DNA of 64,000 nt from assembly GCA_947179485.1 (NCBI GenBank), contig OX359246.1, positions 28,148,001-28,212,000 on the forward strand, given 5' to 3'. This stretch comes from Allacma fusca (taxonomy: Eukaryota; Arthropoda; Collembola; Symphypleona; Sminthuridae). The position numbers were made by a program, and so were the translations under genes. Of this stretch, positions 1 through 20,074 are shown piece by piece (position 1 is the stretch's first letter; every line of letters begins with the position of its first letter). The notes under the pieces were generated by a model. The model made no database searches. It worked only from the letters and a program-made list of their open reading frames with translations, and was not told where the DNA came from.

Positions 1-1642
1 TAAGACTTTTCCTTGTTCATTTCGCAACTGGATAAAAGATTTACTCCAAACTGTAACTTCTACAGGTTCAATCTACTCCATAGAACACTAACTCTTTAAC
101 GTTTCTCAATTTCCGTCTACTCCGGCTTGTAATATCCTTCCTCTCTCCTTTGAATGTAAGATTTACTAAACATTGACGGAGAACACAAACACTAGTATTT
201 TTCTTACAAATCCTCAAACTGAGAGGACAACCTTTTTCTCTTGTGTGTGAGTTAGCGACTTGAACCATTTACAAGTTCTGCGTTAAAGTGCTTCGCCCTC
301 AAACAACGGCAATTAGTACTTTTTCATATTAGACGGCAATCTGCAATACCAGGGAAACCACAAGTTTACAAGGGAGAAAATTACAAGTCTACAAGGAAGA
401 AGACCAAAATCACTGGGACATTCTCACTTCAGTCTTCAAGTGACTCAATCACGGAAATTGCAAAGCAGCCTTTGAAAAGGATCACCATCACTCCTACATC
501 GTAAGAAGCCGCTTATTCCGGAAGAATTCTCAGTGACATGACCTGAACTTGTGTGCAAACTCACCCGAACATCCGATTCCCTGATTCCCGAAGATCAAGC
601 AAAAGTGTCGTACAAAAACCGTATCTATCCAGAAAAATCTAAAAGGATTTCTCACTGTAAGATCGTATCTTTTCATTTTTCATTTTTCATTCTTATTTCA
701 ATTTTGCTCGAGTTATTAGGGGCAAAATTCTCATTCTTCCTTTACTTCCCTATATACTTTCAGGGAAACAGAATTATTCTTCACCTCTAGTATATTAAAA
801 TATCGAATGAAAGTATATCATTAAAATGAATGTATAACATAAATATGTGTGTCTAAAAGTGCAAAACTAACATTGTGAATGTTTGTCGTATGGTTATGGG
901 ATTAGAATATTTGTTTGTATATGTCTTATGAATGTTTTGTCTCAACTCTCCCCATAAACTAGATTCCCTTATCTATAAGAATTTGGTATGGTAAAAGACG
1001 GGAAATAAGTGTCTTTAACGCTTCTATTTAATTTCCCTCTAAGGTATCTTAACACTCCCCATTATTTCTCCTTCAAAAAGTTGTAACTTTCCTATCCACC
1101 CAAAAACCTCTTAACGCTTTTTCTTGTATTATCCAAAATGTGTATTGGAGTATAACACTCCGGATGTAAACCATGTATTGAAGTCTCACTCCTCGTGAAA
1201 CCATTAAAACCCTCACCCAAAAATCCTGTGTAACATAAAAATTAATATTCTTAATATAACAATCTCGTATTAATCAACAATTAAGATATTAATCGCATGA
1301 AGCATATTAAGACTAGCAACGGGTTATAACGTTGCTGTATCAACATCATTTGAGGGGTAATTTTAAGTAGCTTCATAATACATGAACCATCAATAGAGCA
1401 AGAACAATACCGAGAACTCAGCCTCTGAAATATCTTTCTCGCAACCCTAATTTCATCTCGACATTTATGACTAAGGAAAACTTTATTTTCAAATTCAGTC
1501 AGAATTTTAAGAAATATCTACCTTCAGCTTAGCCATTTGTCTGCTAAGTCGCTCAATATCTTTTTCCAATTTTCCAACTTGATACTTTCAAAGGGAAAAT
1601 TGTCCTCGCAATTTTTATGACTGTTGTTAATATTCAAACAAC
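1..1642. other. non-coding, AT-rich stretch
   Basis: No convincing gene is seen on either strand; the short open frames here (for example 551-790 on plus) have no recognisable domain. The only structure noted is a 30-bp core near 168-197 that recurs near 5227-5256 with three differences. It may be internal sequence of the element that ends at 6660. Confidence 0.5.
166..212 (+). repeat. short direct repeat, copy 1 (partner at 5225-5270)
   Basis: The core ATTTACTAAACATTGACGG and the following AGAACACAAAC recur at 5225-5270 with three substitutions. The two copies bracket the six-ORF array and lie in the same orientation. They may be a shared control site of one element or the trace of a short duplication. 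Confidence 0.6.
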
Positions 1643-2055
1643 TCAGAATACTCCACAAAAATTTTTCCAGTTGAACTTTTTAGCATCAATCATCGAAGAA
1701 AATTTAAGGGATTTGGAATCGATGATTAGCTCAAATTCAAGTTTGAATTTATGGGATTTGCGTATATAATAACTCAGTTTCAATCTTGACACGTGAACTG
1801 TTAGGGTTTTAACTGTGTTACCAACAGTAATGTTCCCTGAGACTTTAACATAAAAATTATGAAAGGCAAGCAAAACTTTGCATTTTGGGACTGGAATTTC
1901 TGAATCAGTTTTGGAATCCCGATCCTCAGGAATGTATTTTCATCATAATTGTCTTCCTGAAAATAACATTTGAATAGCTCCCTGATAGGTTTTTCTTTTC
2001 CAAACAGAAATACAACAAACAGGAAGAAACAAATTTTTATTTCGAGTTTTTCCAC
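1643..2055 (-). pseudogene. small secreted protein, frameshifted; faint takeout/JHBP-like resemblance
   Basis: Reading from 2055 leftward, the frame opens with a hydrophobic signal-like start (MEKLEIKICFFLFVVFLFG) and continues through a GIP-containing segment. Near 1873 the plausible continuation moves to another frame, giving LLAFHNFYVKVSGNITVG and a beta-strand-like tail ending at 1643. One frameshift in the run around 1875 would join the two frames. The order (signal peptide, Cys, GIP motif, then a VKVSG strand and alternating hydrophobic strands) is loosely like the takeout/juvenile-hormone-binding family, but only by eye. It could also be an unrelated secreted protein, or a gene with a short intron there. 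No upstream exon or poly(A) signal was identified. Confidence 0.3.
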
Positions 2056-2676
2056 TCTAATAAGTCAGATTTCAGGAGACAAAGTCTAACAAAATTCGTT
2101 CTCGTTACGACCGTAAATTTCGGAATTTTGAGAGAGTCCCACTACATTATTTACATCCGTTTTGAAAACTCGATCCTCAGGGTGAGTGATCAATTCTATA
2201 AGTATCGGGAAAAATAGAGGAGTAGGAACTAGCAATTTCCCCTCTCTTTTTTGTAAAGTAATAGATGTTATTCCAAGAAATCATTGATAGCCAATAGTAA
2301 CGAAGTTCGAATCATTAACAGGCATCAATTTTGAGTTTATGATTCAGAAATAGAAGGCTTCATAACTTAACGTGACGTTGCAGTAATAGGCTAGAAAGTT
2401 TTTTTCTATCTTCACAACTCTACAAATATTATTTTACAGTATGGAATATACTGAAGTCATATCTCATTTTACGTAATCTGAATCATTGAAGCCAAGGTCA
2501 AGAGAATTAAGTCCTTCCGACTCCCATAATGCTTTCCGAAACTTATATCCCAATTTAGTTTCCAGAGTAAAACAATTTTCTAGCGTTTTTGAATTATAGT
2601 TCATTAGGGTTAAAAGCAAAGGAATTTCGGTATTCTCTTAACAATGTACGTAGTTTAAAGAGTTTTTCAATTTTCA
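2056..2676. promoter_or_regulatory. leader region upstream of the six-ORF array
   Basis: No ORF of note. A five-codon upstream ORF (ATG at 2643, stop TAA at 2655-2657) ends 19 bases before the first ATG of the array. It could affect scanning if the array is transcribed from here. No clear TATA box is seen at the expected spacing. Confidence 0.3.
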
Positions 2677-2973
2677 ATGTGGTCACCTGCTGATAATAAT
2701 TTAGCGGTTGAAGCAACACTTTGTTTACTCTCAAAAACAACACGAATTGTTCTTTCAACTGCAAACAAGCATTACATTACAATTAGTGAATACGACGCCC
2801 CAGACACACATATCTGTAAGTTAAACGTTATTAAGGATAATACTCTCCATCAGAAAGTATTTGACACTATTGGAGAATTATATCTCTTTATGTTAACGAC
2901 CCCTAACGTACACCTTGGTAATCAAATGGAACTAAATACCACTCATGCCCCAATAGTCCACTTCATGGGCTAG
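2677..2973 (+). CDS. array ORF A, 98-aa protein of unknown family
   Basis: First of six consecutive same-strand ORFs that encode related proteins. The C-terminal half carries the shared block: a beta-like strand (CKLNVIKDN), a hydrophobic LYLFMLT segment, then TPNVHLGNQM. It is the longest member, with extra residues at both ends, and the TPNV..G..M motif lies about 20 residues before the end. It has no signal peptide or membrane segment. The next ORF starts 37 bases downstream. I recognise no known domain. The relation among the six members is visible directly; function is unknown. Confidence 0.6.
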   Translation: MWSPADNNLAVEATLCLLSKTTRIVLSTANKHYITISEYDAPDTHICKLNVIKDNTLHQKVFDTIGELYLFMLTTPNVHLGNQMELNTTHAPIVHFMG

Positions 2974-3010
2974 CCCAATAAGTTGCCCTCAAAATTTCTC
3001 TTTCATCCGC

Positions 3011-3238
3011 ATGAATATCACCGCCGGACAAAAATATAGGTTAGACGGTGACCCCAATAATTACGTAAAATTCGACATCCGATACACAACTATTTTTCCC
3101 CTTCCAGACTATATTTTGACAGTCAAAAGAAATTCTCAAATTTTTCAGAAAACATTCCCCAACTGGGAAGAATTATTGATTTTTACACTACGAACTCCCA
3201 ATGTCAATCTAGGAAATAAAATGACTAGAGTCACATAA
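3011..3238 (+). CDS. array ORF B, 75-aa protein, paralogue of A and C-F
   Basis: It has the full family pattern: YILTVKRNSQIFQKTF, a spacer, LLIFTLRTPNVNLGNKM, then a five-residue tail. The start at 3011 is the only ATG that keeps the N-terminal part, and no purine-rich Shine-Dalgarno-like stretch precedes it. It lies between A (37-base gap) and C (23-base gap) with no room for separate promoters. The protein is small, soluble-looking and of mixed charge. Confidence 0.65.
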   Translation: MNITAGQKYRLDGDPNNYVKFDIRYTTIFPLPDYILTVKRNSQIFQKTFPNWEELLIFTLRTPNVNLGNKMTRVT

Positions 3239-3261
3239 GAACATTCTTTCATTATATTTCC

Positions 3262-3513
3262 ATGGCTTACCTAGAAAAACAGCCAGGCATTGTTACCAGT
3301 TTCGAAATCCCAGCATCAGATAACCCCATTTTCTGTACAGACTGCATAGAATTTGAACAAATTCTGAGAGCAGACGGTACCACTTTCCATCTATTAAGAG
3401 TTAGAAGAGGAGCACAAGTCTTCCACAAACAATTTACAACTCACCAAAAACTTATAAATTTTTTGTGTACAACCCCTAATGTTTCACGTGGTTTTAATAT
3501 GTCAGAAGTATAA
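3262..3513 (+). CDS. array ORF C, 83-aa protein, paralogue
   Basis: It begins with a good eukaryotic initiation context (ccATGG). The N-terminus contains PGIV followed by FEIP, a pattern shared with D and E. The C-terminal block is LLRVRRGAQVFHKQF, then LINFLCTTPNVSRGFNM. Its stop codon TAA (3511-3513) is followed at once by the ATG of ORF D. Cysteines near the middle (CTDC) are not shared by the other members. Confidence 0.7.
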   Translation: MAYLEKQPGIVTSFEIPASDNPIFCTDCIEFEQILRADGTTFHLLRVRRGAQVFHKQFTTHQKLINFLCTTPNVSRGFNMSEV

Positions 3514-3759
3514 ATGAGTAACTTTCGACCCGGAATTGCTTACGAGTTTGAAATTCCCCTCAACGAAATTACTATTTCCCCCAACTATCCCATTGCTACT
3601 TCTGAGCTTTTACAAAATATAAATAACTATGTGTACATTTTAAGAATACGAAAAGGGAGCGAGATTGGAGAAAATTATTTTAATTCTCACCAAGACTTAA
3701 TCAATTTTCTTTCAAACAGTCCCCATCTAAGTTTTTCCCCTCCAGCCAATGAGGAATAA
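3514..3759 (+). CDS. array ORF D, 81-aa protein, paralogue with degenerate motif
   Basis: It starts on the base after the stop of ORF C (TAAATG). The N-terminus has PGIA and FEIP like C. The block YILRIRKGSEI then LINFLSNSPHLS matches the family, but the otherwise conserved PNV..G..M is replaced by PHLSFSPP, so this member is the most diverged at the C-terminus. Its last 11 bases overlap the start of ORF E in another frame. Confidence 0.65.
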   Translation: MSNFRPGIAYEFEIPLNEITISPNYPIATSELLQNINNYVYILRIRKGSEIGENYFNSHQDLINFLSNSPHLSFSPPANEE

Positions 3760-3979
3760 TTTACCTGGCATACAGGAATATTTAAAAATTCCTCTGGAAA
3801 ATAGTGACTGTGCTGAGTATGAGTTAATTCGACTTTATGACGACTCCCTCATACACCGCCTCACTCTTACAGTAAATTCTAAGAAATTCGAAAAAGACTT
3901 TACTTCCATCACACTTCTCCTCAAATTTATCTATTCCCACCCTAACTTATTTAAAGGTTATTGGATGCTAGAAATATGA
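3749..3979 (+). CDS. array ORF E, 76-aa protein, paralogue
   Basis: The ATG at 3749 lies inside the end of ORF D (11-base overlap, +1 frame). The N-terminus carries PGIQ and LKIP, equivalent to PGI..FEIP in C and D. The C-terminal block is RLTLTVNSKKFEKDF, then LLKFIYSHPNLFKGYWM. The stop TGA at 3977-3979 shares bases with the ATG of ORF F (ATGA). Confidence 0.65.
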   Translation: MRNNLPGIQEYLKIPLENSDCAEYELIRLYDDSLIHRLTLTVNSKKFEKDFTSITLLLKFIYSHPNLFKGYWMLEI

Positions 3980-4212
3980 GAATTAACACTTTATTCTATT
4001 ATAAACACCCCTTAGTTTACCCCATCACCCGCAAATCAGATTACATAGCTTATGAAATTTATGGATCAGACCTTAACTGCGCAATACATATTTTAACTCT
4101 ACAATATCAGGAGAATAAATTTCAACGTCAGTTCCCTTCTTATAAAGCCCTTATGGAATTTGTAAGAATAACTCCAAATGTAACCACAGGTCAAGGAATG
4201 AACCCTGCATAA
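3976..4212 (+). CDS. array ORF F, 78-aa protein, last paralogue
   Basis: I start it at the ATG at 3976, which forms a four-base ATGA overlap with the stop of ORF E; an in-frame TTG at 3961 would add five residues. The family block is IHILTLQYQENKFQRQF, then LMEFVRITPNVTTGQGM, ending four residues later. It closes the array: the next 1.2 kb contains no similar ORF. A CTCF-like motif lies about 40 bases downstream. Confidence 0.65.
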   Translation: MRINTLFYYKHPLVYPITRKSDYIAYEIYGSDLNCAIHILTLQYQENKFQRQFPSYKALMEFVRITPNVTTGQGMNPA

Positions 4213-4249
4213 GTAAAATCTTATCCGTATTTTCATTTAAGGTTTATGC

Positions 4250-4263
4250 GCGCCATCTAGTGA
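4250..4263 (-). promoter_or_regulatory. CTCF-like binding motif
   Basis: The minus strand reads TCACTAGATGGCGC, which fits the animal CTCF core (CCASYAGRKGGCRS) at 13 of 14 positions. It lies just past the end of the six-ORF array. With one mismatch allowed, a chance match somewhere in a window this size is not rare, so the call is tentative. Confidence 0.25.
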
Positions 4264-5224
4264 TAAAATATAATACTCACTCAACTACTTGAATTTCTAG
4301 ATTTATATGCTTTCAATAATTTCCCCTTATTTTCTCTTTCAGTTTTTTTTTGTTTTTACATGATTTTTCGTTTATTACATCAATTTTTAAAGAACTTTTG
4401 CTCACAATTTATCTTCGCTTCAAGGATCAATCCATCTTCCACATGGTAGCGTAACTAAAGTAAAACACTACATAAGTCTAGGTTAAAATCACAAAGGTAA
4501 AATTACTTGGCAAAATAATATTAACAACTAGCTCTAACAAGAACCTGAAAACGCGGGAAAATCTTTTGCTTTGTTTTTTCTTGGATATATATTTAAGCAT
4601 AATCTATTAACGAGTCAGTAGCTTCCCACAACATCGTGAAGTAGTAATAAGTAGTATATGGTATATATTTTTAAGGAGTATCCAGTTATAATTACCTTTA
4701 AACTATAAGTATCTGACATCAAGGGTATATGTAGGGAACACACAAATACAAATACCATTTTTCTCACTAGAATATGAACAAAGGAACTATACACACCTAT
4801 AATTAGCGGATAAGGTATTTTAGGACTACACATAACATAATCGAGTTGGTTACTTCCATATATAACGTTGATTCTTTACAAGTATTTCATTCTTCAAAAC
4901 TCTTCTAATAATGACATAAAGGTATAATAACATCAAGTTTTAAATATATGGTCATAAGTAGAAATATGTCGTGCTACTGCTGAATTTAGGCTAATGTATT
5001 AACATTTCATACAGAATTTACCCTAATTTTTAGGACAATTTTATGTATTTTCTTCGAAGTTTTTAAGAACAGTGTTAAAGGTTTTTAAGTACTGTTTACC
5101 CGAACTGAGTGCATTTAGATCGTAGAGGTTTCAGTAACAGAGATTCTAGGAATCACCCGGTCTTCCTTCAGGTCAAACTATTAATAGTTATCGCCTGGTT
5201 TTGTATATAAAAATTGTTTCAAAA

Positions 5225-5270
5225 CATTTACTTAACATTGATGGAAAACACAAACTACTAATAATTCCTC
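5225..5270 (+). repeat. short direct repeat, copy 2 (partner at 166-212)
   Basis: Matches 166-212 with about 27 of 30 core bases identical, same orientation. It lies about 140 bases upstream of the ORF at 5411. Confidence 0.6.
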
Positions 5271-5410
5271 GTTTCATTTTTTGTATTATAATAATTATTG
5301 ACCCCAATACTGTCTGGAGTATTATACAGCAATTGATACCTTAAAACTGAATATAAACATATCATATGTAAAAAGTCACAAATTTTGAGTGTATAAATAG
5401 TGCAAGCAAC

Positions 5411-5830
5411 ATGAGTGCGCGTCCTTCGAGCAGTCACCAGTCTATCCCCAACCCTCCACCACAACCACCGAAGAATGTTCCAGACAAGATAGGAGACATC
5501 GGTCCTTCAGCAATTCAGCTCCTCCGGTTACAGCTAGATATTCAAAAGACCATTGAAAACATCACTCCATTTGAACAAACACTCCCATACCAAAACATTC
5601 TAATCAACAGATTACTAATAGACTGTGTAAAGTTTATTCTTTCAGCCAATGGTTTGATCAGAGCTCATTACACTGACAATTTTGAGATTTATGCCCAAAC
5701 TATGAATAATATTTTGCACCTGCTCGAGACAATCAATCCCGATTTCCCATATTGCGAGTGCCTTCCGTGGCAAGTAGCCAAATACCAGGTCACCCCACCC
5801 ACTCACCCACCAGCGCCCCCGCAGCTATAA
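5411..5830 (+). CDS. 139-aa proline-flanked protein, unknown; possible retroelement ORF
   Basis: The protein has a Ser/Pro-rich N-terminus (residues 1-25), a central region with several amphipathic helices (about 35-115), and a Pro-rich tail (about 125-137). The layout is loosely like a small structural or matrix protein, but no family is recognised. It overlaps the upstream end of the next open frame. Its position just before an LTR-like end suggests it belongs to a retroelement; it could also be the 5' part of an envelope-like gene now broken. Confidence 0.45.
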   Translation: MSARPSSSHQSIPNPPPQPPKNVPDKIGDIGPSAIQLLRLQLDIQKTIENITPFEQTLPYQNILINRLLIDCVKFILSANGLIRAHYTDNFEIYAQTMNNILHLLETINPDFPYCECLPWQVAKYQVTPPTHPPAPPQL

Positions 5831-5859
5831 GTCCGTTCCAGCGCCAAGCATACACGAAT

Positions 5860-6123
5860 ATGACCACAATATTTTTCACCCATCCCATTGTGCATCGACT
5901 ACTTAACTCAGAATCCACAATGTCAGTTCTGTACATTATATTCATAGTATTGCCCTATTCAGTAATTGGATTCTCAATCTTCTTTGTGATTTGCAAGTTT
6001 TGTGTCCACCCATATCTCCAGCGCCGACTGTTCCGTCAAACTCCAGTGTGGACACCTCCCGGTCATTTCACTACCGAACCGTCTCAGTATGATTTTTGTC
6101 CACCTCCAATAAGTGCAGTATAG
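5860..6123 (+). CDS. 87-aa single-pass membrane protein; env-like C-terminus next to the LTR
   Basis: The frame is open from 5752, but the first plausible ATG outside the preceding ORF is at 5860. After about 27 residues comes a strong membrane segment (SVLYIIFIVLPYSVIGFSIF), then a basic stretch and a Pro-rich cytoplasmic-like tail. A membrane anchor with a short tail ending 35 bases before a 3' LTR is where LTR elements with an env gene place the end of env. No surface domain, fusion peptide or furin site is visible. If it is an env remnant, the rest has been lost or recoded. Confidence 0.4.
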   Translation: MTTIFFTHPIVHRLLNSESTMSVLYIIFIVLPYSVIGFSIFFVICKFCVHPYLQRRLFRQTPVWTPPGHFTTEPSQYDFCPPPISAV

Positions 6124-6158
6124 GCTGGTTGAGGACAACCAGTAGCCAAGAAAAGCCA

Positions 6159-6660
6159 TGTTAAGGCTAAACTTACGTCATGACAAACAATCATATGAGA
6201 GCATCCAAGTACAGGTGTACCGAGAGTGGGCATGACTTCCGTCTTCAAGAGCGCCTATGAGAACTCTTTTAAACAGACGCTCATCTCAGCCCACCACTAA
6301 AAGATCAACAGGGATCTCTCAAGCTCCCCACAAACCTAGAACCTGTACTAAAGGTAGCCAAATTAAGAAGGTGAGATCTCCAAGAGGAGGAGAACTTGAA
6401 GCCCTATATAAACATCTTCCAACACGGAGAGCAGAGCTCGCCGATACGGAGTTCAACCTCTCACCACTCAACTCAATACTATCTTCTTTACAGCCCTCAC
6501 TCCCAGTGCTATTTTCTACAAAGTTCCAATCTCATAATTTCGAGATAAGTGCAAAATAAAGACTCTGAATATTTTACACTTCGAGACTCAAGTTGCCCCA
6601 TCATGTGCTAAGAGTCCATACAAACTTTACAACTACAAAGAGACACTTTTACTTTCAACA
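6159..6660 (+). mobile_element. LTR-like sequence (502 bp), probably a 3' or solo LTR
   Basis: It begins TGTTAAGG and ends TTTCAACA, so the ends form TGTT...AACA. It is preceded by a purine-rich stretch (AAGAAAAGCC) in the place of a polypurine tract. Inside, in the expected order, are a TATA-like box (TATATAAA, 6405-6412) and a poly(A) signal AATAAA (6555-6560). No partner LTR was found in the window. The 5' LTR and any gag-pol would have to lie left of position 1. No primer binding site follows at 6661, which argues against a 5' LTR. Confidence 0.5.
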
Positions 6661-7651
6661 TGAAAAGGAAGGAGAGATACAAGCCCGACCACCGCATGTG
6701 TTCCCCTTCGTGAAGTTCACTCTCTCTCAAAATAAGACCTTTTTACACAACTCACAAGTGTGCGGCCTATAACTTACATGAAGATACATTCGTCACCCCT
6801 GCTCATCGCTGCCTCTTCAGTTCCCCTTTTCCAACCCTCACGCGACTTGGCTGTGTGACTGCCCGGTATGTCTATGTAAAGTTATTATGTTGTGCCTGTA
6901 AATTAATGTACATTCTTTGTTTTACTTTTGTTTTCACTGTAGTTAAACCCATAGGTTTGAGGTCTTCCTCCTCACAATTCAATTCAATTTATGTTAGGTG
7001 ATTTGGGGAAGGTCTCCACTATGGATGACATTTGCATGTAACTAAACCACGAACTAGCAGTAAGAGTCAGTTAGGTTAAAGTGCTTGTTTTAACATTTTA
7101 ATATATGGAATATTTGCAGTATGCTATTCTAGAACATCCAGAATAATATTGTCTGCGGACATTAATAAACAGTTTTCATACCTACAATTTACACTATATT
7201 TCTGTAGTTTATCAGAGTACATTTGTCTAGATTAAGAAGGGAATCCTACCTCCCTCACAAAGGTAGAGACAGTTTAACACTCAGATTGGACCCTAGAATA
7301 AATATGAAGGTTTAAGTAATGGAATTCAATAAAGTAATGTCGTGTTAAAAGGATATGAACAGAATCATTTACAATTATTCTTTTCATCCATTTTATTTAT
7401 ATCATTCTTAGAATAACTCTCATTTACAAACCACTCATTTGTGTTCCTGGTTACGGATTCGACGGATGCCTCAACCTTGCCCGTGCTCATGTTTTCCCAA
7501 AATCCACTACACACTTTCTTTTATTTCTCCGTTTTCACAATATTCTTTCCACTTTAGATCCGTCTGGTTGGTTATTTCTTGAGGCGAGGTAACCAATTCA
7601 ACAATATAGTTATAATTGTAAGCGTCGAGTTGGTATTCTTACGAATTTCAG
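6661..7651. other. non-coding, AT-rich
   Basis: No gene, RNA or repeat recognised. It separates the LTR-like end from the orphan receptor exon. Confidence 0.5.
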
Positions 7652-8028
7652 AGCCTTTTAATTTTGTTGGATCTTCATTGGTATCCGGGGGTCTTTTTTT
7701 AAGCTACTGGAATCCGAAGATACAACGATATCAGACAGCCAAAGGTCAGCAGTATGCTAAGCTTCATGTGCGTACACACAGGTACTATGAAGGGAAAGGA
7801 AACAAAGCTCCCTCTAATCGTCAAATCGTAACTTTGTCATACACACTTCTTATATACGGATTAATTAGTTCTCTTGGTATGTTCGTGCTGGAGACGGCCA
7901 TATTCAATAGACGACTGCTTTACACTACACTGTTATATTTTTATTCATTCCAATGTTCACATCATTTAAATTGTAAACTGACAAACACCGTAATTTCTTT
8001 GAGAACAAGAAAAGCATCAAGTTTTTAA
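7652..8028 (+). pseudogene. orphan last exon of an ionotropic-receptor-like gene
   Basis: It is preceded by a good acceptor (ATTTCAG) and homologous to the last exon of the intact gene at 15965-16314 over most of its length: EPFNFVGS, LVSGGLFLSYWNPKIQ, GQQYAKLHVRTH and LLIYGLISSLGMFVLE are shared. That exon carries the final membrane segment of the receptor. The two upstream exons are absent, and the C-terminal tail after the membrane segment has diverged. The 1 kb downstream is also homologous to the spacer after the intact gene, so this is a segmental duplication copy that lost its 5' part. Confidence 0.8.
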
Positions 8029-9063
8029 AAGCTGTTGAGCATTAAATATTTATTCGTTTTGCACTTGTTGCAATTTTATAGTCGTTTATTGTGCAGCAAA
8101 AACTGTTGCATGACAATAAATTAAAAATTAAATCGATTTGAGTAAATTGAATGCAAACAAGACGGAACTTCCCCTATTGAATATTATTACAAGTACTTGT
8201 CCAATTCATTTTATCATGTTCGATGTGTGAACGTGTGAAGTATCTTATACATACATTAACGTACACATTTACAGAACTGCAAATCTTTAAAATCTGTAAT
8301 ACTTTTAAATCTTTGAATCAAAGTAAGAAAGGCGATGGAAGACTGGATACATCATAAATTGCAACTAAATATATTCATAACCGATTAGAAACCTTATGTA
8401 TGCAAATCGTAGTGTTACAATAGTATATTGTAAGTATCTACATTTCCAATACATACAGTGAAACAAAATCGTTGCTATATACTGTGATTTATATTTCGGA
8501 ATACATGCAACAGGGATTCCGAATTCCGGTGAACAGGTTCAACGTGGTAATAAGTACTAAAAGGAATAATTATTTTGGTAGCTCAAAGTTATTCCTTACA
8601 ATGAGAAACATTGCTATTACGCATGCAACATTGCACAATACTAATAATAATATTGGAAGGCTAAAGTTAACCACAGAGCCTAAATATAATCAACGAAGAG
8701 GAGCTTATTTAGCAAGAACACGTAATGTCAATAAGACCTGGAAACAATAAATTATTAATTCAACCTTTAAGTAAGAGAAAACTCACTACTGAGATTGTCA
8801 GTAGAGAGCGACTGGATTTCAGGTTAGAGAGGCCCAAAGAGACAGCAACAAGGTAACTCTACTCCGTAGCTATAACAAATAGTAATGGATATTAAAATCC
8901 TTCACAGTACGTAATCTCGAATTTATTAAAGAATGAATTGTTATAACATGTCGTTTTCCCAATTGCATCGAATGTTTACATTTTGAAAACAACACTACGT
9001 GTCAACCATATTCAGCTCGAAGTTTCATGGTGGCCAGAATCTTTGGTCACTGAGTAAATTATA
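8029..9063. repeat. duplicated spacer, copy of 16315-17410
   Basis: Blocks such as ATTAAATATTTATTC, TTAATCGATTTGA-like sequence and ATTTATTAAAGAATGAATTG recur in the same order after the intact receptor gene 1. It holds no gene. The match resumes at 11175 after the Helitron insertions. Confidence 0.7.
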
Positions 9064-10218
9064 CTAGTAAAAGCCCCGTGCTTCGCACAGGAGCAATTAC
9101 TTGTGTAAATAAATAGTGTAAATAATAAAAGTGTAAATGACAATAGATCTCGTATCAAGGCCTGTCGAGAAGGCATAATATTAATATCCCGCTTCGCCAG
9201 GCAAAGTAATCTCATATAAGACGTGAACTATTAACTGTAAGACTAACAATTTGTTTCATATAGGTAGTTGGCAATTCATCATCAAAATATTATGGGATAA
9301 CAGCTTCCGGCCCACTAAAGGTTTCTCTCAAACTCAATATTTGGCTATACACGTGGAATTTAACTAATCGCTTGATCAATTTAATACCAACGTCGTTATT
9401 AAACCTTGCTGTTGCATCACTGCATGGTGCTTCACCCCTTAGTGGATCACCACAACGTGCTGATCAAATATGATTTTTTATTATTTTATAATTTATATAT
9501 AGATCCGTTGTACCGCAATATTGTAACTGAAGCCTCAGACACTGGACGCACTGATTATTTAAAATAGAAAAAATGAAAGGATTTCATATTAGCGCAACAC
9601 ATTTAACTTGCTATAGTTACTAAAGTCCATGGTTCCTACAAATCAATCCTTACTTCCTTAATGATATTTTTAGGGATATAAAGATCAAAACTCTGGATGC
9701 TAAGACTTGTAATTATTCTTCCTATTAAGAATCCCACACGAATGTGAACTAAGTTCAGCCATTAAAATTCTCCTCTTATCAAATTCTTCAGTGGTGTAAC
9801 CGAACGTAGTTTTTCTCACTACCACTCTTAATTTAATCCAAATTTGATGATTTATGTCTAATGTTATAATAATTATGATTAGCGCTTTTAAGTGATAATC
9901 TAAAATGGCGTAATATTGCGAGGTTTCAGTAGGCTGCAAGCAGTTGGTATATATCCGAGAAGCAAAGCGAGCTGAGCGAGCTGAAAAAGCTCTCCTCTGC
10001 GACAGAGTCTCATCTTTCAGCTCGCTGTGCTTCTCGGCTTGTTGTATATACCACCGACTTGCTTGGACATATAGTGAAATAATATAGTACATACCGGCTT
10101 CCTATATAGTGAAATAAGCCTGGAAGGTTTGAATTCGTGAAATAAGCCGCGAAGGTTTGAATTGTAAAGCCAAGGCCGCGAAAGTTTAAATCATAGAAAG
10201 TGGTCAATAATAATAAGA
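9064..10218 (-). mobile_element. Helitron-like non-autonomous element, copy 1
   Basis: On the minus strand it ends with a small hairpin (GTGC loop GCAC within CCTGTGCGAAGCACGGGGC) followed within six bases by CTAG and a host T, the expected Helitron 3' end. The opposite end begins TC on the minus strand. There are no terminal inverted repeats or long ORFs. It lies head to tail with copy 2, one base apart. An internal inverted repeat at 9936-10064 can form a long hairpin. Confidence 0.65.
9936..10064. repeat. long inverted repeat inside Helitron copy 1
   Basis: The arms run from GCAAGCAGTTGG and CCGAGAAGC on the left to the reverse complement (GCTTCTCGG, GACTTGCTTGG) on the right. They are about 50 bp each with some mismatches around a central TCTCCTCTGCGACAGAG. 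Confidence 0.7.
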
Positions 10219-10219
10219 A

Positions 10220-11174
10220 CTAGTAACAGCCCCGTGCTTCGCACAGGAGCAATTACTTGTGTAAATAAATAGTGTAAATAATAAAAGTGTAAATGGCAAT
10301 AGATCTCTTATCAAGGCCTGTCGAGAAGGCTTAATATTAATATCCCGCTTCGCCAGGCAAAGTAATCTCATATAAGACGTGAAGTATTAACTGTAAGACT
10401 AACAATTCGTTTCATATAGGTAGTTGGCAATTCATCATCAAAATATTATGGGACAACAGCTTTCGGCCCACTAAAGTTTTCTCCCAAACTCAATATTTGG
10501 CTATACACGTGGAATTTAACTAACCGCTTGATCAATTTAATACCAACGTCGTTATTAAATCTTGCTGTTGCATCACTGTATGGTGCTTCACTCCTTATTG
10601 TTAGTGGATCAGCACACCGTGCTGATCAAATATGTTTTTTATGTTATTATAATTTGTATATAAATCCGTTGTACCGCAAATATTGTAACTGAAGCCTCAG
10701 ACACTGGACGCACTGATTATTTAATTTTTCCTGGTAAGAATCCCACACTAATGTGAACAAAGTTCAGTCATTAAAATTCTCCTCTTATCAAATTATTCTG
10801 TACTGTAACCGAACGTAGTTTTTCTCACTACCAGTCTTAGTTTAATCCAAATTATTGATGATTTATGTCTAATGTTTATATAATAATTATGATTAGCGCT
10901 TTTAAGTGATAATCTAAAATGGCGTAATATTGAGAGCTTCCCTTCCAGTAGGCTGCAAGCAGTTGGTTTATAGCCGAGAAGAAAAGCGAGCTGAGCGAGC
11001 TGAAAAAGCTCTCCTCCTCCTCTGCGACAGAGTCTCAGCTTTCAGCCCGCTGTGCTTCTCGGCTTGTTGTATATACCACCGACTTGCTTGGCTTAAGCCG
11101 GGATGGTTTGAATTCGTGAAATAAGCCGCGAAGGTTTAAATCAAAGGACAGGTCGAGAGCAATAAGAAGAAGGA
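10220..11174 (-). mobile_element. Helitron-like non-autonomous element, copy 2
   Basis: Same family and orientation as copy 1, with an internal deletion of about 200 bp relative to it. The 3' end hairpin and CTAG are at 10220-10240. The left boundary in the minus-strand sense is set at GA/T (11173-11175) to keep the A/T insertion rule; the exact base is uncertain by a few positions. Confidence 0.6.
10955..11090. repeat. long inverted repeat inside Helitron copy 2
   Basis: Equivalent of the hairpin in copy 1, with a few bases inserted in the loop (CTCCTCCTCCTC). Retention of pairing in both copies is visible by eye. Confidence 0.65.
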
Positions 11175-11249
11175 TTAGTATATCCCTTAAAATATCTGTG
11201 ATTAATTTTTTTAAATTGCAAATAATTCCATTTTATTTTGTGAACAAGG

Positions 11250-11285
11250 ATGAAATTACTAAAGTTCATGGTATCGTATCATATC
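11250..11285 (+). pseudogene. start region of a lost ionotropic-receptor-like gene
   Basis: The sequence TTTTGTGAACAAGGATGAAA followed by a TACTAAAGTTCAT block matches the leader and start of the intact gene at 17461 almost exactly. The similarity stops about 20 bases after the ATG. The frame closes after about 58 codons with no receptor features. With the orphan exon at 7652 it marks the two ends of a duplicated exon-spacer-start segment. Confidence 0.6.
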
Positions 11286-12084
11286 ATCGGTCAGGTATCA
11301 AATACTATAACTTTTATAGCAGATTTATGCTACTATGCTGTCCAATGCAAGTTAATTCGGCAATTTAAATCAAATGCGCTTAGATGTTGCTATAATGGAC
11401 GTTACAAATTTTGTGAAAAATGAGCTCATGACAAGCCAATGCTTGGAAGTGTGTAATCTTTTCTGATTTTTTAAAATTTCTAAACTTCAAAAAAAGAAAT
11501 TATTTTCCAGACTATTGATGACTTAAAATTATTTCCTACATACTGGACACATGAAAATATGCTTGCACATGTACGTATATTACTAGTGGGTGTTCAGATA
11601 TAATCAATAGTAACCCTCACAGTAATGTTTTCTTAGCACATGAAATTACAAAAAACAAACTCATTATAAGTATATTTGTTGTTGTTAACAACATTTATTT
11701 GATGAGGGTGAAAAAGTATACCGCAACTCACGGTTTTAAAAATAAATTCGTTTGACGATCATATATTTAAGCAATCTAAACAAGTGTTTACATTTTGGTG
11801 CTCAAAAACTATTTTTCAGCATCACAAGGAATTTTTAAACTGTGATAAGTCTCAAAATGTCCAAGCTGCACTGCCTAAAATACACAAAAACATGGCATGT
11901 GGGCAGGTGTTTTTAGTTGGGTAGAAAAACACTGCATGAGTTTCAATCGACACCCTAACAATAGCAAAAGTTCAAGGATTGAAATTTATGGCCATACAAA
12001 TTACGTTATTTTATGTACATACATATTCCGAGCTAGTGACATAAGTGCCTTGAGAAACATTCAGTAGTTATTGAGATTTTCGAC

Positions 12085-12295
12085 TTGCTGGTTTTTGACT
12101 TGAAGTCAAAAAGTCAATACAAGAATTTGTTTCTCAAAAACTATCCGCCCGATTTCACCAAAAGAAGAACTCGGTCTTACTTTTGACACAAGTATTGTCC
12201 ATAACAAATTTCATTGAAATCGGTTAATGAATTTTTGAGTGAAGACACGGACGTACGGACAATGCTATTTTACTGGGGGGATGACGCTACCCTAA
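12085..12295 (+). mobile_element. Tc1/mariner-type MITE fragment (GGGTGGCRTCAG family)
   Basis: Shares the internal blocks CATTGAAATCGGTT and GACACAAGT with the copies near 28870 and 61133. It ends GATGACGCTACCCTA, the family right end next to TA. Its left end is not recognised. Confidence 0.6.
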
Positions 12296-13236
12296 ATACG
12301 AAATGACATTGTTCACTCCAATCTTCCTGTTTTGAAGATTTTGTAATGACACTGTTTTTATATTTTGATTTGCACTGTTACACTAAATGGATCCTGTAAT
12401 GTCAGGGATGAAAACCAACATATGTATTGACTCCTTTGACATTGAAATAAAAAGTAATATTAACAATAACAATAACAATATGCACATGTAAGATGCAATG
12501 ATTGTATTGTCAACATTAGAGAATACCAAAAGCACAGTTATGGCAATTTAAACGCATGCAGTGTACTCTCACTATGATGGCATTTTATGCATATTTATGA
12601 AATAAATTATTTATGGGGTCATTATATATACGTGTGCTATTACACTGAAAATACACTGCATGTTTAAAACTAATTAAAATAGTAGCTATGTACGCACAGT
12701 TCGGAGAGTAAAATCATGTCCGTGCTATAATTACTTTTACTAGTTTTAAATGTAATGTTTTGAGTAATTATACACGAGTCTCACTAAATAATGAAAAAAA
12801 ATGTGATTTTTTTTCAATAACCTATATTAATTTTGCGGATTTTATGCGAATAATACACTAGCAAAAGTAGTAAATAAAAATATTTAATGGTATATTTCAC
12901 GGATACTAAGCTTGTTTATGAAAATCGTGTAATTTACGCTATACTATACGTTCAAATTTGGGACATGTTTGGACGTCTTTTACTGCTAATATTTGGGTGA
13001 TTCACAAACGTTATCAACTTCACCGTTCTGAAACATTTAAAATCAGTACATGTACTCCAAGTATTCTCGAATATTAATATACCATCAACCTTATTTGAGA
13101 AAATCAAATTCAGTGACTGACGTCACCATTTGAAGCAATTTATCAAAATATGAATTCAGGATTTTCATAAAAGAAACTTCAAATAAAAATGTGCTTATTA
13201 TTCTACCATATTTGAGAACATGAACTTTAATGATAC

Positions 13237-13780
13237 GTCCCTATTAGCAGCGATTTAGTAATATTCCAGGTATTCGGGTTGTGCTGCCCAGAAATAAAAT
13301 TCAAACACTTACAGCAAACGAATTTACAATTCTCGCTTTTACAAACAATACGCGAACGGAATTGCGTTCTATCAATAAATACTAAACAGTGTAAATATGT
13401 TTGTATACAGTAGGTCATTGATTGTATCTTGCATCACATTCAAATATCAACCATGGTTGTAATACGTTTTACTACTTAAGGAAAGTTCGTTAAACATTCA
13501 GTAGTACACACATAACACGGCCACAAAAGCAGCGATTTAGCAAACTAGAGTTCCAAGTCATGGGGTTGTGCTGCGCAGAAATAAAATTCAATCACTTACA
13601 GCAAAATAATTAACAACTATGGCTTTTACCAACAATACATAATTCCGTTCGATCAATAAATACTGCAGAGTTTTCACTTTAATGTTTTCACAATAGGCCA
13701 TGTAACTTGCATCTCATTCAAATATCAACCAAAGTTGTCACTTATTGTATACTTAAGCATTGTTAAACAACTAGTAGCAT
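13237..13780 (+). repeat. tandem direct repeat, two diverged ~270-bp copies
   Basis: Copy 1 is 13237-13507 and copy 2 is 13528-13780. Shared blocks in order: AGCAGCGATTTAG, GGGTTGTGCTGC, AGAAATAAAATTCAA, ATCAATAAATACT, CATTCAAATATCAACCA. The second copy ends about 280 bp before the start of receptor gene 1, so it may carry duplicated promoter sequence. Confidence 0.7.
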
Positions 13781-14058
13781 ACAAGTTACTTTTGCATGTC
13801 ATAACAAAAGCCTAAATTATTCAATCATTTGTATGCCACGACCTGTATTATGCTTCAGACAAACGTATTCAAACTTGTATGCTCACTGTGCGCAATTAGT
13901 GCTCAAATTATTTATAGAAATTAATTTTTGTGATGGTTACACTTGTTTCAAAACATCTTAAAATACCACTAACCGCAAACACTTAAAGCCCGAGTGGAAG
14001 TGTTCCTACGAAATTTTAAAGATAAAACCATTTGTGACACTGCAAAAATAGCTCTTAT

Positions 14059-16314
14059 ATGTATAAATTTACTTTTGCAGTTAGTATGCCTTACACCACA
14101 AAAATCAACGTAATTCTGCCACTGCTTTTCTGGGGATTGCATACATTCGTAAATGCGAATACAACTAATCTCAACAAACCTGACTCGTTGTTGTCAGAGA
14201 CAGCGGTTCCGTTCATCCGTTTTATAAATTCTTTTCAAATTTCGATCCTCCCTCAGTGTCAGTATATGAACATTGTCTTGCTAAATTATTTTACTGATAA
14301 CCCCGTTAGCACTTTAAGTGTACAAAATCAGTTTCAGATATATTCAATTTTTTATATTTATTCGTCCCAAACCTCAAATGTCACACAAATTCCTGTGTTT
14401 AGGCATAGTTTTGCTTGTGTAATGTTTCTAGTAAATATGCACAAAGATATGTTAATTCCAAAAGGATTTACAAACTTTGATATCTTAAATGGTCATTTTA
14501 TATTTGTTTTTACTAATGACTTCCCATCAGACACAATTACAGATCATGTGACTCGTCTAGGCGATTCAGCACGAGCCTTCTTAAAAGCTGTGCTTCTATT
14601 CACATCTGCAGCCAAAACACAAGCCTTTGTCCCCTCAGCACTAAAAGCTGGCCAAGTTCAAAAAGCTTACGATGTTTCAAATAGTTTAAAAGATACCGGC
14701 CTTGTACAAATCAGTCAAGAAAGTTCCATAAAGATTGATTTGCAACGCAGACCAGTTAAAGTTTTAGTGTGTGCGGTATGCGATCCAACAGCGCAACAGC
14801 AGGTTTCATCACCTTTGATTTTTGTATTTGCCAATTTTGTTTCTTTTATTAATGCAACTCCGGAATATGAAACCCTATTTGCTGAGATTAGTTCAGCTGA
14901 CTGGAAAAACCCTTTGATAGATGGCACTGCGGCCATGTCTATACCTTTGATCCTCGATGATGGAGTACTTGATTATCATCCATCCTCTTTAAACTTATTC
15001 CTAGGCAATATCTTTGTCACGGCACTCCCCAAAACAAGGGAGTACAGCTCAATGATACAATTGTGTCATCCTTTTAGCCCTGCTGTGTGGGCGATGACTC
15101 TAGCGTTTGTCATGGTAGTTTACGCGTTTCTCGAATTCATGTTCTATTTTAAAACGCGCATAAGTACAGGAAAACTGCATATCGGTGTGGATGTAACATC
15201 TCGTCAAATGTATGCCAATGGATTCACACACCTTATCACGTGTCCGGTGCTACTAAAACCCTTCTTTGACCAGTCAATTGAAACGAAAATTCTTGCACAT
15301 TCGAGGCGCAATACTTGGAGTCAAGTAATTTTAGCAATTTGGCTGCTCGTACTAATTGTGCTGGGATCGGGGTACAAAATGAAGCTTCTGGAAATGGTTG
15401 TTCTCCCGTACTATGTATTCCCGCCATCCACCTTCAATGAGCTGGCAAAGTCAAATTACCGAATTGGTATATTGTCACACGAGAAAATAAAAGCGGATTT
15501 AAACTCATCAAAGAGCAGTGTGTCTAAGGCAATCGAGCAAAGATACATAGAATTTGAGTTTGTGGATTCAGCTGTAAGATAACCATTTTGTCAATGCTAG
15601 AATAATTTATCATACGGTTTTGAATGTGTTTCTATTTAAATTCCAGTGTTATCAAAATATATTTGAGGAAAATATGGCATGCATTGGACCAAATTATGCA
15701 TTTGACTTCCTTGGGACCCCATATATGACAGATGTTCACAAGCAATTACTTTCACAGAGATCTAAAGACACATTATTCGATCAGTTAATAAGCATTGGCA
15801 TCAGCAAATTTTACCCCCATTTAATTGGTACTATTAAGCTCTATTAATAATTATTCTGAGAATACATGCCTTTCTGAATATATAGACTTTTTGATTAGAT
15901 TATTGGAATAATCATTGCAAGTTGTAGGAACTAAGTATCCATTTGACATTCTCATAAATTTCAGAGCCTTTTAATTTTATCGGGTCTGGATTGGTCTCCG
16001 GAGGTCTGTTTTTAAGCTACTGGAATCCAAAGATACAACGACTCAAGACAGATGAAGGTCAGCAGTATGCTAAGCTTCATGTGCGTACTCACCCATACTA
16101 TGAAGGGAAAGGAAACAAAGCTATCTCTAATCGACAAATTATAACTTTGTCGTACAAACTTCTTATTTACGGATTAATTAGCTCTCTGTGTATGTTCGTG
16201 CTGGAGATGGTCATAACTAGTATAGGACTTGCCTATACTGCGCTGTTACATTACCATTCGAAGGCTGTAATAAATTTAGAAGAAAATGTGGTAACCCCAG
16301 AACTAAATATATAA
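14059..16314 (+). CDS. ionotropic-receptor-like chemoreceptor 1 (three exons)
   Basis: Exons 14059-15573, 15647-15827 and 15965-16314 join in frame (phases 0 and 1) to about 681 aa. Introns are 73 and 137 bp with good GT-AG sites. A signal peptide ends near NA-NTT (residue 34); a second ATG at 14086 gives a more typical one. A long divergent extracellular region follows, then the first membrane segment (about 343-365, AVWAMTLAFVMVVYAFLEF), a pore-like stretch, a second segment (about 422-443, ILAIWLLVLIVLGSGYK), the second ligand-binding lobe, and a last membrane segment near 628-650. The order matches the IR branch of ionotropic glutamate receptors: ligand-gated cation channels of sensory dendrites. 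The ligand is unknown and no close orthologue is named. Confidence 0.85.
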
Positions 16315-17460
16315 TGTAAACTGTAACTAATGTATTATCACAAGTAAGGCTGACAAGTTTGAAATGTGACAGTCAAGCAAGTCGTGTACGTACATGCGTA
16401 ACGTCATTGGGGAAAGCAAACAATTTTGTATTGTTCTCATGAGTTAAACTGTAAATTAATTAATTATTTAATTTCTTTGAAAACAAGGAAAACCCTCAAG
16501 TTTTAAAGAGCTGTCATTAAATATTTATTCATTCTGCATTTGTCGCTACTCTCCAAACGTGTATTGTGTATGGAAAACAATTGCATGTCAATTAATTCAC
16601 AATTTTAATCGATTTGATTAAACTCAATCTGAATAAGACGGAATACCTCATATCGCATATTATTAGATGTACATACATATGTACATGTCCATTTTATTCT
16701 AGCATATTGGATTTTGTGAAGGATCTTATTCATTAACGTAACACATCTACAGAAACACAAATTTTTAATATCTGTAAAGCTTGCAAGTCACAGCCAAAAA
16801 TTACAAAAAAGGATGCACGACTCGTTAATTGAAATCAAATACATTCTTAAAAAATAAAAAACGTGATTTGCAACTGTACAAAGCAATACTTAACATAACA
16901 CTGAAACGAAATCGTTGCTCTATATTTTGTTGTATTTTGCCTGTATGGAATGCAATAGGGTTGTTTTTTTTCAGCTTAATGGAAATCAAGTCAAGATGAT
17001 TTCTGTGACAATACAAAAACAGTTTTAAGTCCGAAGTACGAAGTTTGCTTAAATACAGCAAATATAGCTATCATAATTTCATAACAAATGGATACAAAGA
17101 ATGTGTCAATAAAAGCAATCAATCGTCAGTACACAATACAATAGAATGCAAGTATAACTTATTGTTAGGATATGTTTCATTCAGTCCAAATTTAGGTTTC
17201 TTGGTAAAAGTATGTATCTCACGCATTCCAAGAGTAAATCTATACTGTCGCGTCGTAATAAATACATGACCTCTAATTTATTAAAGAATGAATTGCAATG
17301 AAATCATATCGGCCGTGTTTAACTTTTGCCACAACCCTCCGTGGCAAACATATTCATCTGAAGGTTCCATGGCCGCGTAATTTAACACATTGGATACGGA
17401 GTAAATAATATGATATCCTTGAAAATATCTGTGACTTCCAAATTAATTTTGTGAACAAGG
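16315..17460. other. spacer between receptor genes 1 and 2
   Basis: Non-coding. It is the intact counterpart of the duplicated spacer at 8029-9063 plus 11175-11249. It probably includes the gene 1 3' UTR and the gene 2 promoter. The block ending GTGAACAAGGATG, which spans the start of gene 2, is the best conserved part. Confidence 0.6.
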
Positions 17461-19663: not shown

Positions 19664-20074
19664 TATTATATAATTTCCCTGCCATTACAATTAAATGTGT
19701 ATCTCTTGAGTTCCTTCATCCTACTTTGGTCGCATGCATAGATATATATACATATGTTTATGTACCCATAAAAAGAGGTAGTACGATTTTTATTTTAATG
19801 TAGTCCAGTTTGTGGTTGCGTGGAATTCTCAAGCCGAACTCGAACCCATCAAATAATTCCTGAGTCTTTCCTCCAGAAACTCTCTTGTCCCTGTATCAAA
19901 TCCTGTTGCTGCGACAAAATTAGAGTTAATGGGAGGCTTGCTGGGAGGATTTTTTTCCACGCATAATGGAACAGAAAAAGATTTGGATTTTTGGTTCTGG
20001 AGATTGGACAAGAACGGTCGGATGGCTTCAAGTTGTAAGCAATACACTGTATCTTGCAGTACAATATATTAGAT
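19664..20074. other. short intergenic region
   Basis: Contains the 3' flank of receptor 2 and the promoter side of the next gene. No repeat or RNA gene recognised. Confidence 0.5.

What the first reader, a model, noticed from the sequence alone, without database searches (positions are those of the whole stretch)
2677..4212. Operon-like array of six paralogous small ORFs in a eukaryotic genome
Six consecutive plus-strand ORFs (75-98 codons) encode proteins sharing a C-terminal pattern: a beta-like strand, an F...F pair, a hydrophobic LxxF helix, and (T)PNV..G..M, which five of the six keep almost intact. C, D and E also share PGI and F/LxIP near the N-terminus. The gaps are 37, 23, 0, -11 and -4 bases, so there is no space for separate promoters or introns. 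Each unit keeps its own ATG and stop, so this is neither one repeat protein nor a set of exons. A polycistronic array of tandemly amplified small genes in an animal genome is rare and suggests a viral, mobile-element or new micropeptide system.
Basis: partly seen in the sequence, partly recalled or inferred. Interest (0 to 1): 0.9.

Follow-up and report, generated by a model that had tools for sequence, protein, structure and literature searches.

The report
Six-gene cassette of giant springtail retroelement
Six related small genes packed head to tail in a springtail chromosome belong to a very large, recently mobile virus-like element, and their proteins are strongly conserved between the copies that were compared.

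Summary
Window 1-7603 is the 3' end of a 24,767-bp Ty3/gypsy-type LTR element in a genome that matches the springtail Allacma fusca. The 3' LTR is window 6159-7603; the 5' LTR lies left of the window. The element carries a small-ORF cluster, gag, pol, an 800-aa third ORF, the six-ORF cassette A-F, and two more small ORFs. In ten insertions examined, the two LTRs of each are identical, yet insertions differ from one another by 1.8-7.7% in the LTR. Across these ten copies 59 of 60 cassette ORFs are intact, junctions B-C to E-F are the same, and pooled dN/dS is 0.029. So the six are functional genes of a recently mobile element. Stop-start overlaps make translation from one RNA by termination-reinitiation likely; no RNA data were available. 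The one member modelled has a five-strand-plus-helix fold without a clear relative, and A-F had no homologue in the collections searched. The role is open; my best guess is subunits of a hetero-oligomer. New variant of a known kind (LTR elements with additional ORFs).

The parts
1..2676 (+). Internal part of the LTR element upstream of the cassette; no recognisable gene found; the 800-aa third ORF ends about 650 bp left of the window
   Evidence: (a selection of stop-free stretches searched against Pfam); strand C-rich except about 1600-2400
2677..2973 (+). Cassette ORF A, 98 aa
   Evidence: dN 0.0009, dS 0.23 over 10 copies; intact in 9 of 10; modelled as 5 strands + helix, mean pLDDT 75
3011..3238 (+). 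Cassette ORF B, 75 aa
   Evidence: dN/dS 0.007; intact in 10 of 10
3262..3513 (+). Cassette ORF C, 83 aa
   Evidence: dN/dS 0.058; intact in 10 of 10
3514..3759 (+). Cassette ORF D, 81 aa; its ATG abuts the stop of C
   Evidence: dN/dS 0.009; intact in 10 of 10
3749..3979 (+). Cassette ORF E, 76 aa; overlaps D by 11 nt
   Evidence: dN/dS 0.081; intact in 10 of 10
3976..4212 (+). Cassette ORF F, 78 aa; ATGA overlap with E
   Evidence: dN/dS 0.013; intact in 10 of 10
5411..5830 (+). Accessory ORF d1, 139 aa, proline-rich ends, probably helical middle
   Evidence: 137 of 139 identical to an A. fusca unnamed protein; dN/dS 0.040 in 7 copies; single-sequence model of low confidence
5860..6123 (+). 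Accessory ORF d2, 87 aa, one strongly hydrophobic segment
   Evidence: KD19 2.62; open at 87 aa in 7 of 7 copies, dN/dS 0.50
6159..7603 (+). 3' LTR, 1445 bp, TGTTAAGG...TTCAACA
   Evidence: 0 mismatches to the 5' LTR at C8:28130837-28132281
7604..7607 (.). Target-site duplication ATAT, also found before the 5' LTR

Best explanation
The array is a six-gene accessory cassette of a giant (24.8 kb) Ty3/gypsy-type LTR element of Allacma fusca. SHOWN: it lies between the third long ORF and the 3' LTR; the six members are under strong purifying selection; order and the junctions B-C to E-F are the same in ten young insertions. INFERRED (about 0.75): the cassette is translated from one element RNA, genomic or spliced, with ribosomes terminating and reinitiating at the abutting or overlapping stop-start codons. 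INFERRED (about 0.3): the six small proteins, one of which is predicted to be a beta-sheet with a helix, are non-interchangeable subunits of a hetero-oligomer that handles the element's unusually long RNA or its particle. A fixed set and order, probable co-translation and little amino-acid change fit assembly partners better than proteins in an arms race. The confidence below is for the identity and selection statement, not for the role.
For: LTR pair 100% identical with a 4-bp TSD and a PBS-like site. Gag-like ORF (zinc knuckles 1.3e-12; Retrotrans_gag 1.7e-4, just below its curated cut-off) and pol with RT, RNase H and integrase zinc-binding domain above their cut-offs, protease and integrase core below theirs, in the order protease, RT, RNase H, integrase; best PDB match Ty3 Gag-Pol, 7.9e-96. 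Cassette whole or decayed in 13 of 15 insertions that have internal sequence next to a 3' LTR, and two more loci at about 71% identity. 59 of 60 ORFs intact in ten copies, pooled dN 0.0059, dS 0.2028; 160 codons vary and 24 of them change the residue (summed; codons in the two overlaps count in both ORFs). Junctions 23, 0, -11, -4 the same in 10 of 10; no ATG in the A-B or B-C gap in 10 of 10, even where A-B is 111 nt. Control: a chance 100-aa ORF in the LTR keeps its length in 1 of 6 other copies.
Against: No transcript or peptide evidence. No homologue or fold match gives a function. Two of 15 insertions lack the cassette; whether they moved without it was not tested. The A-B gap varies (37 or 111 nt), so tight coupling is not needed there. 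ATGs are not depleted over the cassette (23 against 20.2 expected; off-frame ATGs 11 against 15.3, reached by 234 of 2000 codon shuffles). Divergence is uneven along the element: cassette dS 0.20, d1 dS 0.044, non-coding 4620-5380 94.8-99.6% identical, non-coding 1700-2640 aligning only in pieces at 79.7-93.9%; the simple model does not explain this.
Confidence: 0.93

Rival explanations
1. The six proteins are a panel of counter-defence factors, each binding a different host antiviral or small-RNA pathway component, as accessory proteins of retroviruses do (an alternative role within the same element).
For: Old paralogues, each with its own sequence and each retained; accessory location near the 3' LTR; ten insertions are young, so the element has recently escaped silencing.
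Against: Host antagonists usually change fast in protein sequence; here pooled dN is 0.006 with dS 0.20. Only E varies noticeably (13 variable residues).
Confidence: 0.3
2. The ORFs are exons of one repeat protein or of alternatively spliced mRNAs, not separate genes.
For: Introns cannot be excluded without RNA; the units are related to each other.
Against: Start codon, stop codon and length of each unit are kept in 59 of 60 cases although synonymous divergence is about 0.20; exon junctions would not need conserved stops. Gaps of 0, -11 and -4 leave no room for introns between those units.
Confidence: 0.05
3. Host gene family or host operon into which an LTR element inserted by chance.
For: In the window alone one sees only a small-gene array in an animal genome. 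Two cassette relatives (C1:66.5 and 66.6 Mb) were not placed in an LTR context, and a 163-bp piece like F just after the LTR at C1:31.86 Mb was not followed.
Against: The array sits at the same place inside an LTR pair in ten insertions on three contigs, each with its own target duplication.
Confidence: 0.02
4. Meaningless ORFs that are open only because the insertions are young.
For: LTR pairs show no differences, so the insertions are recent.
Against: The copies differ at 160 codons, of which 24 change a residue; the chance ORF in the LTR is not kept.
Confidence: 0.01

Closest known systems
MDG1-group LTR retrotransposons of Drosophila with sORF1 and sORF2 upstream of gag (PMC11952523; abstract and passages seen)
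   Same: Ty3/gypsy-type element without a recognisable Env but with conserved small ORFs, among them a short membrane protein upstream of gag; unspliced LTR-to-LTR transcripts that span the small ORFs are reported there.
   Different: Their transcripts are about 7 kb with two small ORFs; here 24.8 kb, six small ORFs before gag, six paralogues plus two more after the third ORF. None of the three small membrane ORFs has the N-myristoylation motif described for sORF2. Sequence homology to sORF1 or sORF2 was not tested.
Burro giant gypsy-like elements of planarians and Ogre of plants (PMC6431247; passages seen)
   Same: Giant LTR elements with extra coding capacity; the internal part here is 21.9 kb, above that review's 20-kb limit.
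   Different: Burro carries a 4,873-aa polyprotein with several named domains; here gag and pol are ordinary separate ORFs, and the extra proteins are many, small and without known domains. Burro is larger in total (over 30 kb), so this is not a size record.
Fish foamy-like endogenous retroviruses of up to 17 kb with accessory ORFs (as cited in PMC6431247, passages seen)
   Same: Size increase through accessory ORFs.
   Different: Vertebrate elements described as more conventional and retrovirus-like; no array of six paralogues is mentioned in the passages seen.
Additional ORFs in plant LTR retrotransposons (PMC7264820; search listing with start of abstract only)
   Same: LTR elements with extra ORFs beside gag and pol.
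   Different: Not compared in detail.

Membership tests
Ty3/gypsy LTR retroelement (Metaviridae) | Paired LTRs with TG...CA ends and a target-site duplication | tested here: met
   10 of 10 examined insertions, 4-bp duplication; two further pairs recognised were not examined
Ty3/gypsy LTR retroelement (Metaviridae) | tRNA primer-binding site directly after the 5' LTR | tested here: inconclusive
   tggtgtttccgcccgg directly after the 5' LTR in 10 of 10; that it pairs with a tRNA (Val) is my recall, not checked against any tRNA
Ty3/gypsy LTR retroelement (Metaviridae) | gag with CCHC knuckle; pol order protease, RT, RNase H, integrase | tested here: met
   protease, integrase core and Retrotrans_gag matches lie below Pfam's cut-offs; best PDB match is Ty3
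Ty3/gypsy LTR retroelement (Metaviridae) | Place in an RT phylogeny | not tested
   No reference tree was built
Retrovirus or errantivirus with Env | Env glycoprotein ORF with signal peptide, membrane anchor and cleavage site | tested here: inconclusive
   800-aa ORF in the env position: no Pfam family above its cut-off, no PDB sequence match, 3 N-glycosylation motifs, one marginal hydrophobic segment, no R-x-K/R-R
MDG1-type sORF elements | Conserved small ORFs upstream of gag including a short membrane protein | tested here: met
   Six ORFs of 53-148 aa, five of them open at the same length in 10 of 10 copies, two with a strong hydrophobic segment
MDG1-type sORF elements | Canonical N-myristoylation motif of most sORF2 proteins | tested here: not met
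   0 of 3 membrane ORFs; Stalker1 and Stalker2 also lack it according to PMC11952523
Giant transposable element, internal part over 20 kb (PMC6431247) | Internal region over 20 kb without LTRs | tested here: met
   24,767 minus 2 x 1445 = 21,877 bp
Known fold family for A-F | Significant structural match | tested here: inconclusive

The most novel reading that the evidence does not exclude
A. fusca is being colonised now by a circulating retrovirus-like agent of about 25 kb without a recognisable Env. Ten young insertions come from diverged lineages, and no donor copy was seen among the listed LTR matches. Its six-paralogue polycistron encodes a hetero-oligomeric machine that lets such a long RNA genome be packaged or moved, while its coding DNA changes at synonymous sites, perhaps to escape small-RNA silencing, with the proteins held nearly fixed. 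(Odds lowered from 0.15 to 0.1 on checking: the non-coding DNA upstream of the cassette is as diverged as its synonymous sites, so the last part has only one flank in its favour.)
Probability: 0.1. Interest if true: 0.9.

Novelty: new variant of a known kind. Interest (0 to 1): 0.72.

Why it matters
It shows a natural animal element that appears to express six distinct, old paralogues from one stretch of RNA with stop-start junctions that do not vary between copies, a test case for polycistronic reinitiation in animals. It extends the idea that Ty3/gypsy elements carry conserved small ORFs instead of a recognisable Env to a far larger element in a springtail. Ten young insertions from diverged lineages make it possible to ask whether such giant elements spread between individuals.

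Tried and rejected
Pfam and PHROGs with A-F, d1 and d2, and the PDB with the A-F profile: no credible family. Protein searches: A-F alignment 0 hits, C alone 0 hits, d1 one hit; this method needs shared 5-residue words and would miss distant relatives. IMG/VR scans with d1, C, B and F (A, D and E not scanned): no relatives. Rfam on the window and, at E up to 1, on 1-8000: none. TATA to AATAAA spacing as a sign of the LTR: dropped, since such pairs are common in this AT-rich window. ATG depletion as a sign of scanning: not found. Relation of the upstream small ORFs to the A-F profile: best E 0.17; u2-u3 similarity is suggestive only (2 of 1000 shuffles reach it), u2-u4 8 of 1000, u1-u6 18 of 1000; u3-u4, u5-d1, u6-d2 and u1-d2 no better than chance. 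The A entry against L023 rests on a partial hit and is discarded; A survives there only as a 64-nt piece (dN/dS 0.47). The upstream 60-nt and A-B gap distances are inflated by insertions or deletions and not used. Foldseek and VIA lists contain no family that stands out from the unrelated rows. Searches for an account in print; no listed paper was about this element, but several lists were shown only in part (20 of 34, 10 of 175, 8 of 42, 8 of 116) and only open-licence PMC papers are held.

Full report
Observation. The six ORFs are real, at the stated coordinates and with the stated gaps. Dinucleotide shuffles never give more than two such ORFs (0 of 500). Leave-one-out profiles recover each member at E 4e-17 to 1e-6, while the best of 5000 shuffled decoys has E 0.021. 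Pairwise, 13 of 15 pairs beat 99% of shuffles; A-D and D-F do not.

Where it is. The 139-aa ORF downstream (d1) matches an unnamed Allacma fusca protein at 137 of 139 residues. The genome holding the window has 392,743,791 bases; the A. fusca assembly paper gives 392.8 Mb (PMC10427803, start of abstract in the listing; passages). The host is therefore very probably A. fusca, a springtail. Another A. fusca paper, PMC9630974, was only searched for five words, none of which occurs.

What it is. A genome search with window 6100-7000 found 42 matches, many in same-strand pairs 18-24 kb apart; the tool calls such counts lower bounds. The window's copy pairs with C8:28130837: both are LTRs of 1445 bp, identical, flanked by ATAT, with a primer-binding-like site after the 5' LTR. 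The element is 24,767 bp with a 21,877-bp internal part. Its order, in element coordinates, is 5' LTR 1-1445; small ORFs u1-u6 5371-7154; gag 7155-9956; pol 9957-14213; third ORF 14113-16515; cassette A-F 19841-21376; d1 22575-22994; d2 23024-23287; 3' LTR 23323-24767. Boundaries of gag, pol and third ORF are stop to stop. The gag ORF has zinc knuckles and a Retrotrans_gag match just below its cut-off; pol has protease, RT, RNase H and integrase matches, of which protease and integrase core lie below Pfam's cut-offs. The nearest solved protein is Ty3 Gag-Pol. Gag and pol are in the same frame, separated by a TAG. The third ORF has no Pfam family above its cut-off and no PDB match, and does not look like a standard Env.

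Copies. I examined 10 of the 12 LTR pairs that I recognised. In 10 of 10 the two LTRs have no mismatch or gap and a perfect 4-bp duplication, while 3' LTRs differ by 1.8-7.7% between insertions. The insertions are thus recent but descend from lineages that separated earlier; conversion between the two LTRs of an insertion could also keep them alike, but all ten would need it. I looked beside 21 LTR places (window, L011-L019, L020/L046, L021/L045, L022/L047, L023/L055, L048-L054); weaker LTR matches were not looked at. Fifteen have internal sequence on the 3' LTR side. In these the cassette is whole in 11 (window, L011-L019, L045; ORF A interrupted in L013), decayed in 2 (L050, L023) and missing in 2 (C1:31.86 Mb and C84, which keep d1). 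L045 and L050 keep the cassette but lack d1 and d2. A DNA search with the cassette adds two loci at about 71% identity and a 163-bp piece like F just after the LTR at C1:31.86 Mb, which I did not follow. The locus I read at 71% (L056) has remnants of all six members in order, 51-85% identical in amino acids over the matched parts, some frames interrupted. The six-member set is therefore old.

Selection. Over the window and L011-L019, dN/dS is A 0.004, B 0.007, C 0.058, D 0.009, E 0.081, F 0.013, pooled 0.029. Against L045 it is 0-0.10, against L050 0.03-0.10, against L023 0.05-0.08 for B-F. Other small ORFs: u1 no amino-acid change, u2 0.14, u3 0.08; u5 0.20, u6 0.05, d1 0.04, d2 0.50 (d1 and d2 in 7 of the 10 copies, the u ORFs in 10). 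d2 is thus only weakly constrained by this measure. u4 is 89 aa in the window's copy and 114 aa in 9 of 9 others, and was left out of the ratios. A chance ORF in the LTR kept its length in 1 of 6 other copies and serves as control. Pairs of copies are not independent, so these ratios are pooled descriptions, not tests.

How it may be expressed. C-D abut (TAAATG), D-E overlap by 11 nt, E-F by 4 nt (ATGA), in 10 of 10 copies; A-B and B-C gaps contain no ATG in 10 of 10, even where A-B is 111 nt (L013, where A itself is interrupted, and L016) (in L013 the script places A by its full length). This fits termination-reinitiation along one RNA. By my recall of Kozak rules most start contexts are weak. 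ATGs inside the cassette are not significantly depleted. Nothing here shows the RNA.

What the proteins may be. The model of A (6-row alignment, mean pLDDT 75, pTM 0.64) has five antiparallel strands, a helix and a short last strand; the other members were not modelled. Comparison with solved and viral structures gave no significant match. With no homologue the function is inferred: fixed set and order, probable co-translation and little protein change favour a hetero-oligomer (about 0.3) no more than equally with counter-defence proteins (about 0.3); about 0.4 is left for roles that I have not named.

Unexplained. Divergence between copies is uneven along the element. Synonymous divergence in the cassette (0.20) exceeds that of d1 (0.044) and of the u ORFs (0.05-0.12); the non-coding 4620-5380 is 94.8-99.6% identical to six other copies; but upstream of the cassette, 1700-2640 aligns to nine copies only in pieces, at 79.7-93.9%. 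Recombination between lineages is the plain explanation; selection for new nucleotide sequence is a bolder one with little support.

Known relatives. Drosophila MDG1 elements carry two conserved small ORFs upstream of gag, one a membrane protein reported to enable Env-independent transfer (PMC11952523, abstract and passages). Giant gypsy-like Burro and Ogre, and foamy-like elements with accessory ORFs, are reviewed in PMC6431247 (passages). A cassette of six paralogues was not seen in the paper listings, several of which were shown only in part.

Noticed in passing
C8:28136207-28137990 (L009:4008-5791), left of the window: Second cluster of small plus-strand ORFs (53, 81, 94, 89, 148, 66 aa) directly upstream of gag, two with a strong hydrophobic segment; five of the six are open at the same length in 10 of 10 copies.
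   Followed up: partly
L010:4749-7151: 800-aa third ORF overlapping the end of pol, without known domain and without clear Env features.
   Followed up: partly
L010:590-592: Gag ends at a TAG and pol continues in the same frame, an arrangement that suggests stop-codon readthrough.
   Followed up: no
window 1700-5380: Divergence between copies is uneven: high in the non-coding part upstream of the cassette and at its synonymous sites, low in the non-coding part downstream and in d1.
   Followed up: partly
window 2601-2657: This stretch just upstream of A matches 23 other places at 81-86% without the cassette, so it is probably part of another repeat.
   Followed up: no
G000 C1:31864262-31864424: A 163-bp piece 75% like the region of ORF F lies just after an LTR of this family.
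   Followed up: no
window 26100-58300: Large tandem repeat with a period of 9,813 bp or near it, up to four copies 89-100% identical in the listed parts, holding cuticle-protein-like repeats (name by recall); three copies of an ORF with a hAT dimerisation domain (one tested) share the period.
   Followed up: no
window 14059-15582 and 17461-19038: Two long ORFs of 507 and 525 aa that look like divergent ionotropic receptors (by recall); only the second has a weak Lig_chan match, E 0.026, below the cut-off.
   Followed up: no
window 158-200 and 5223-5266: Two stretches of about 43 bp, 84% alike, both inside the element's non-coding parts.
   Followed up: no
C84:78408-97654 and C1:31.86 Mb: Relatives of the element that lack the cassette but keep d1 next to the 3' LTR; L045 and L050 show the reverse.
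   Followed up: partly
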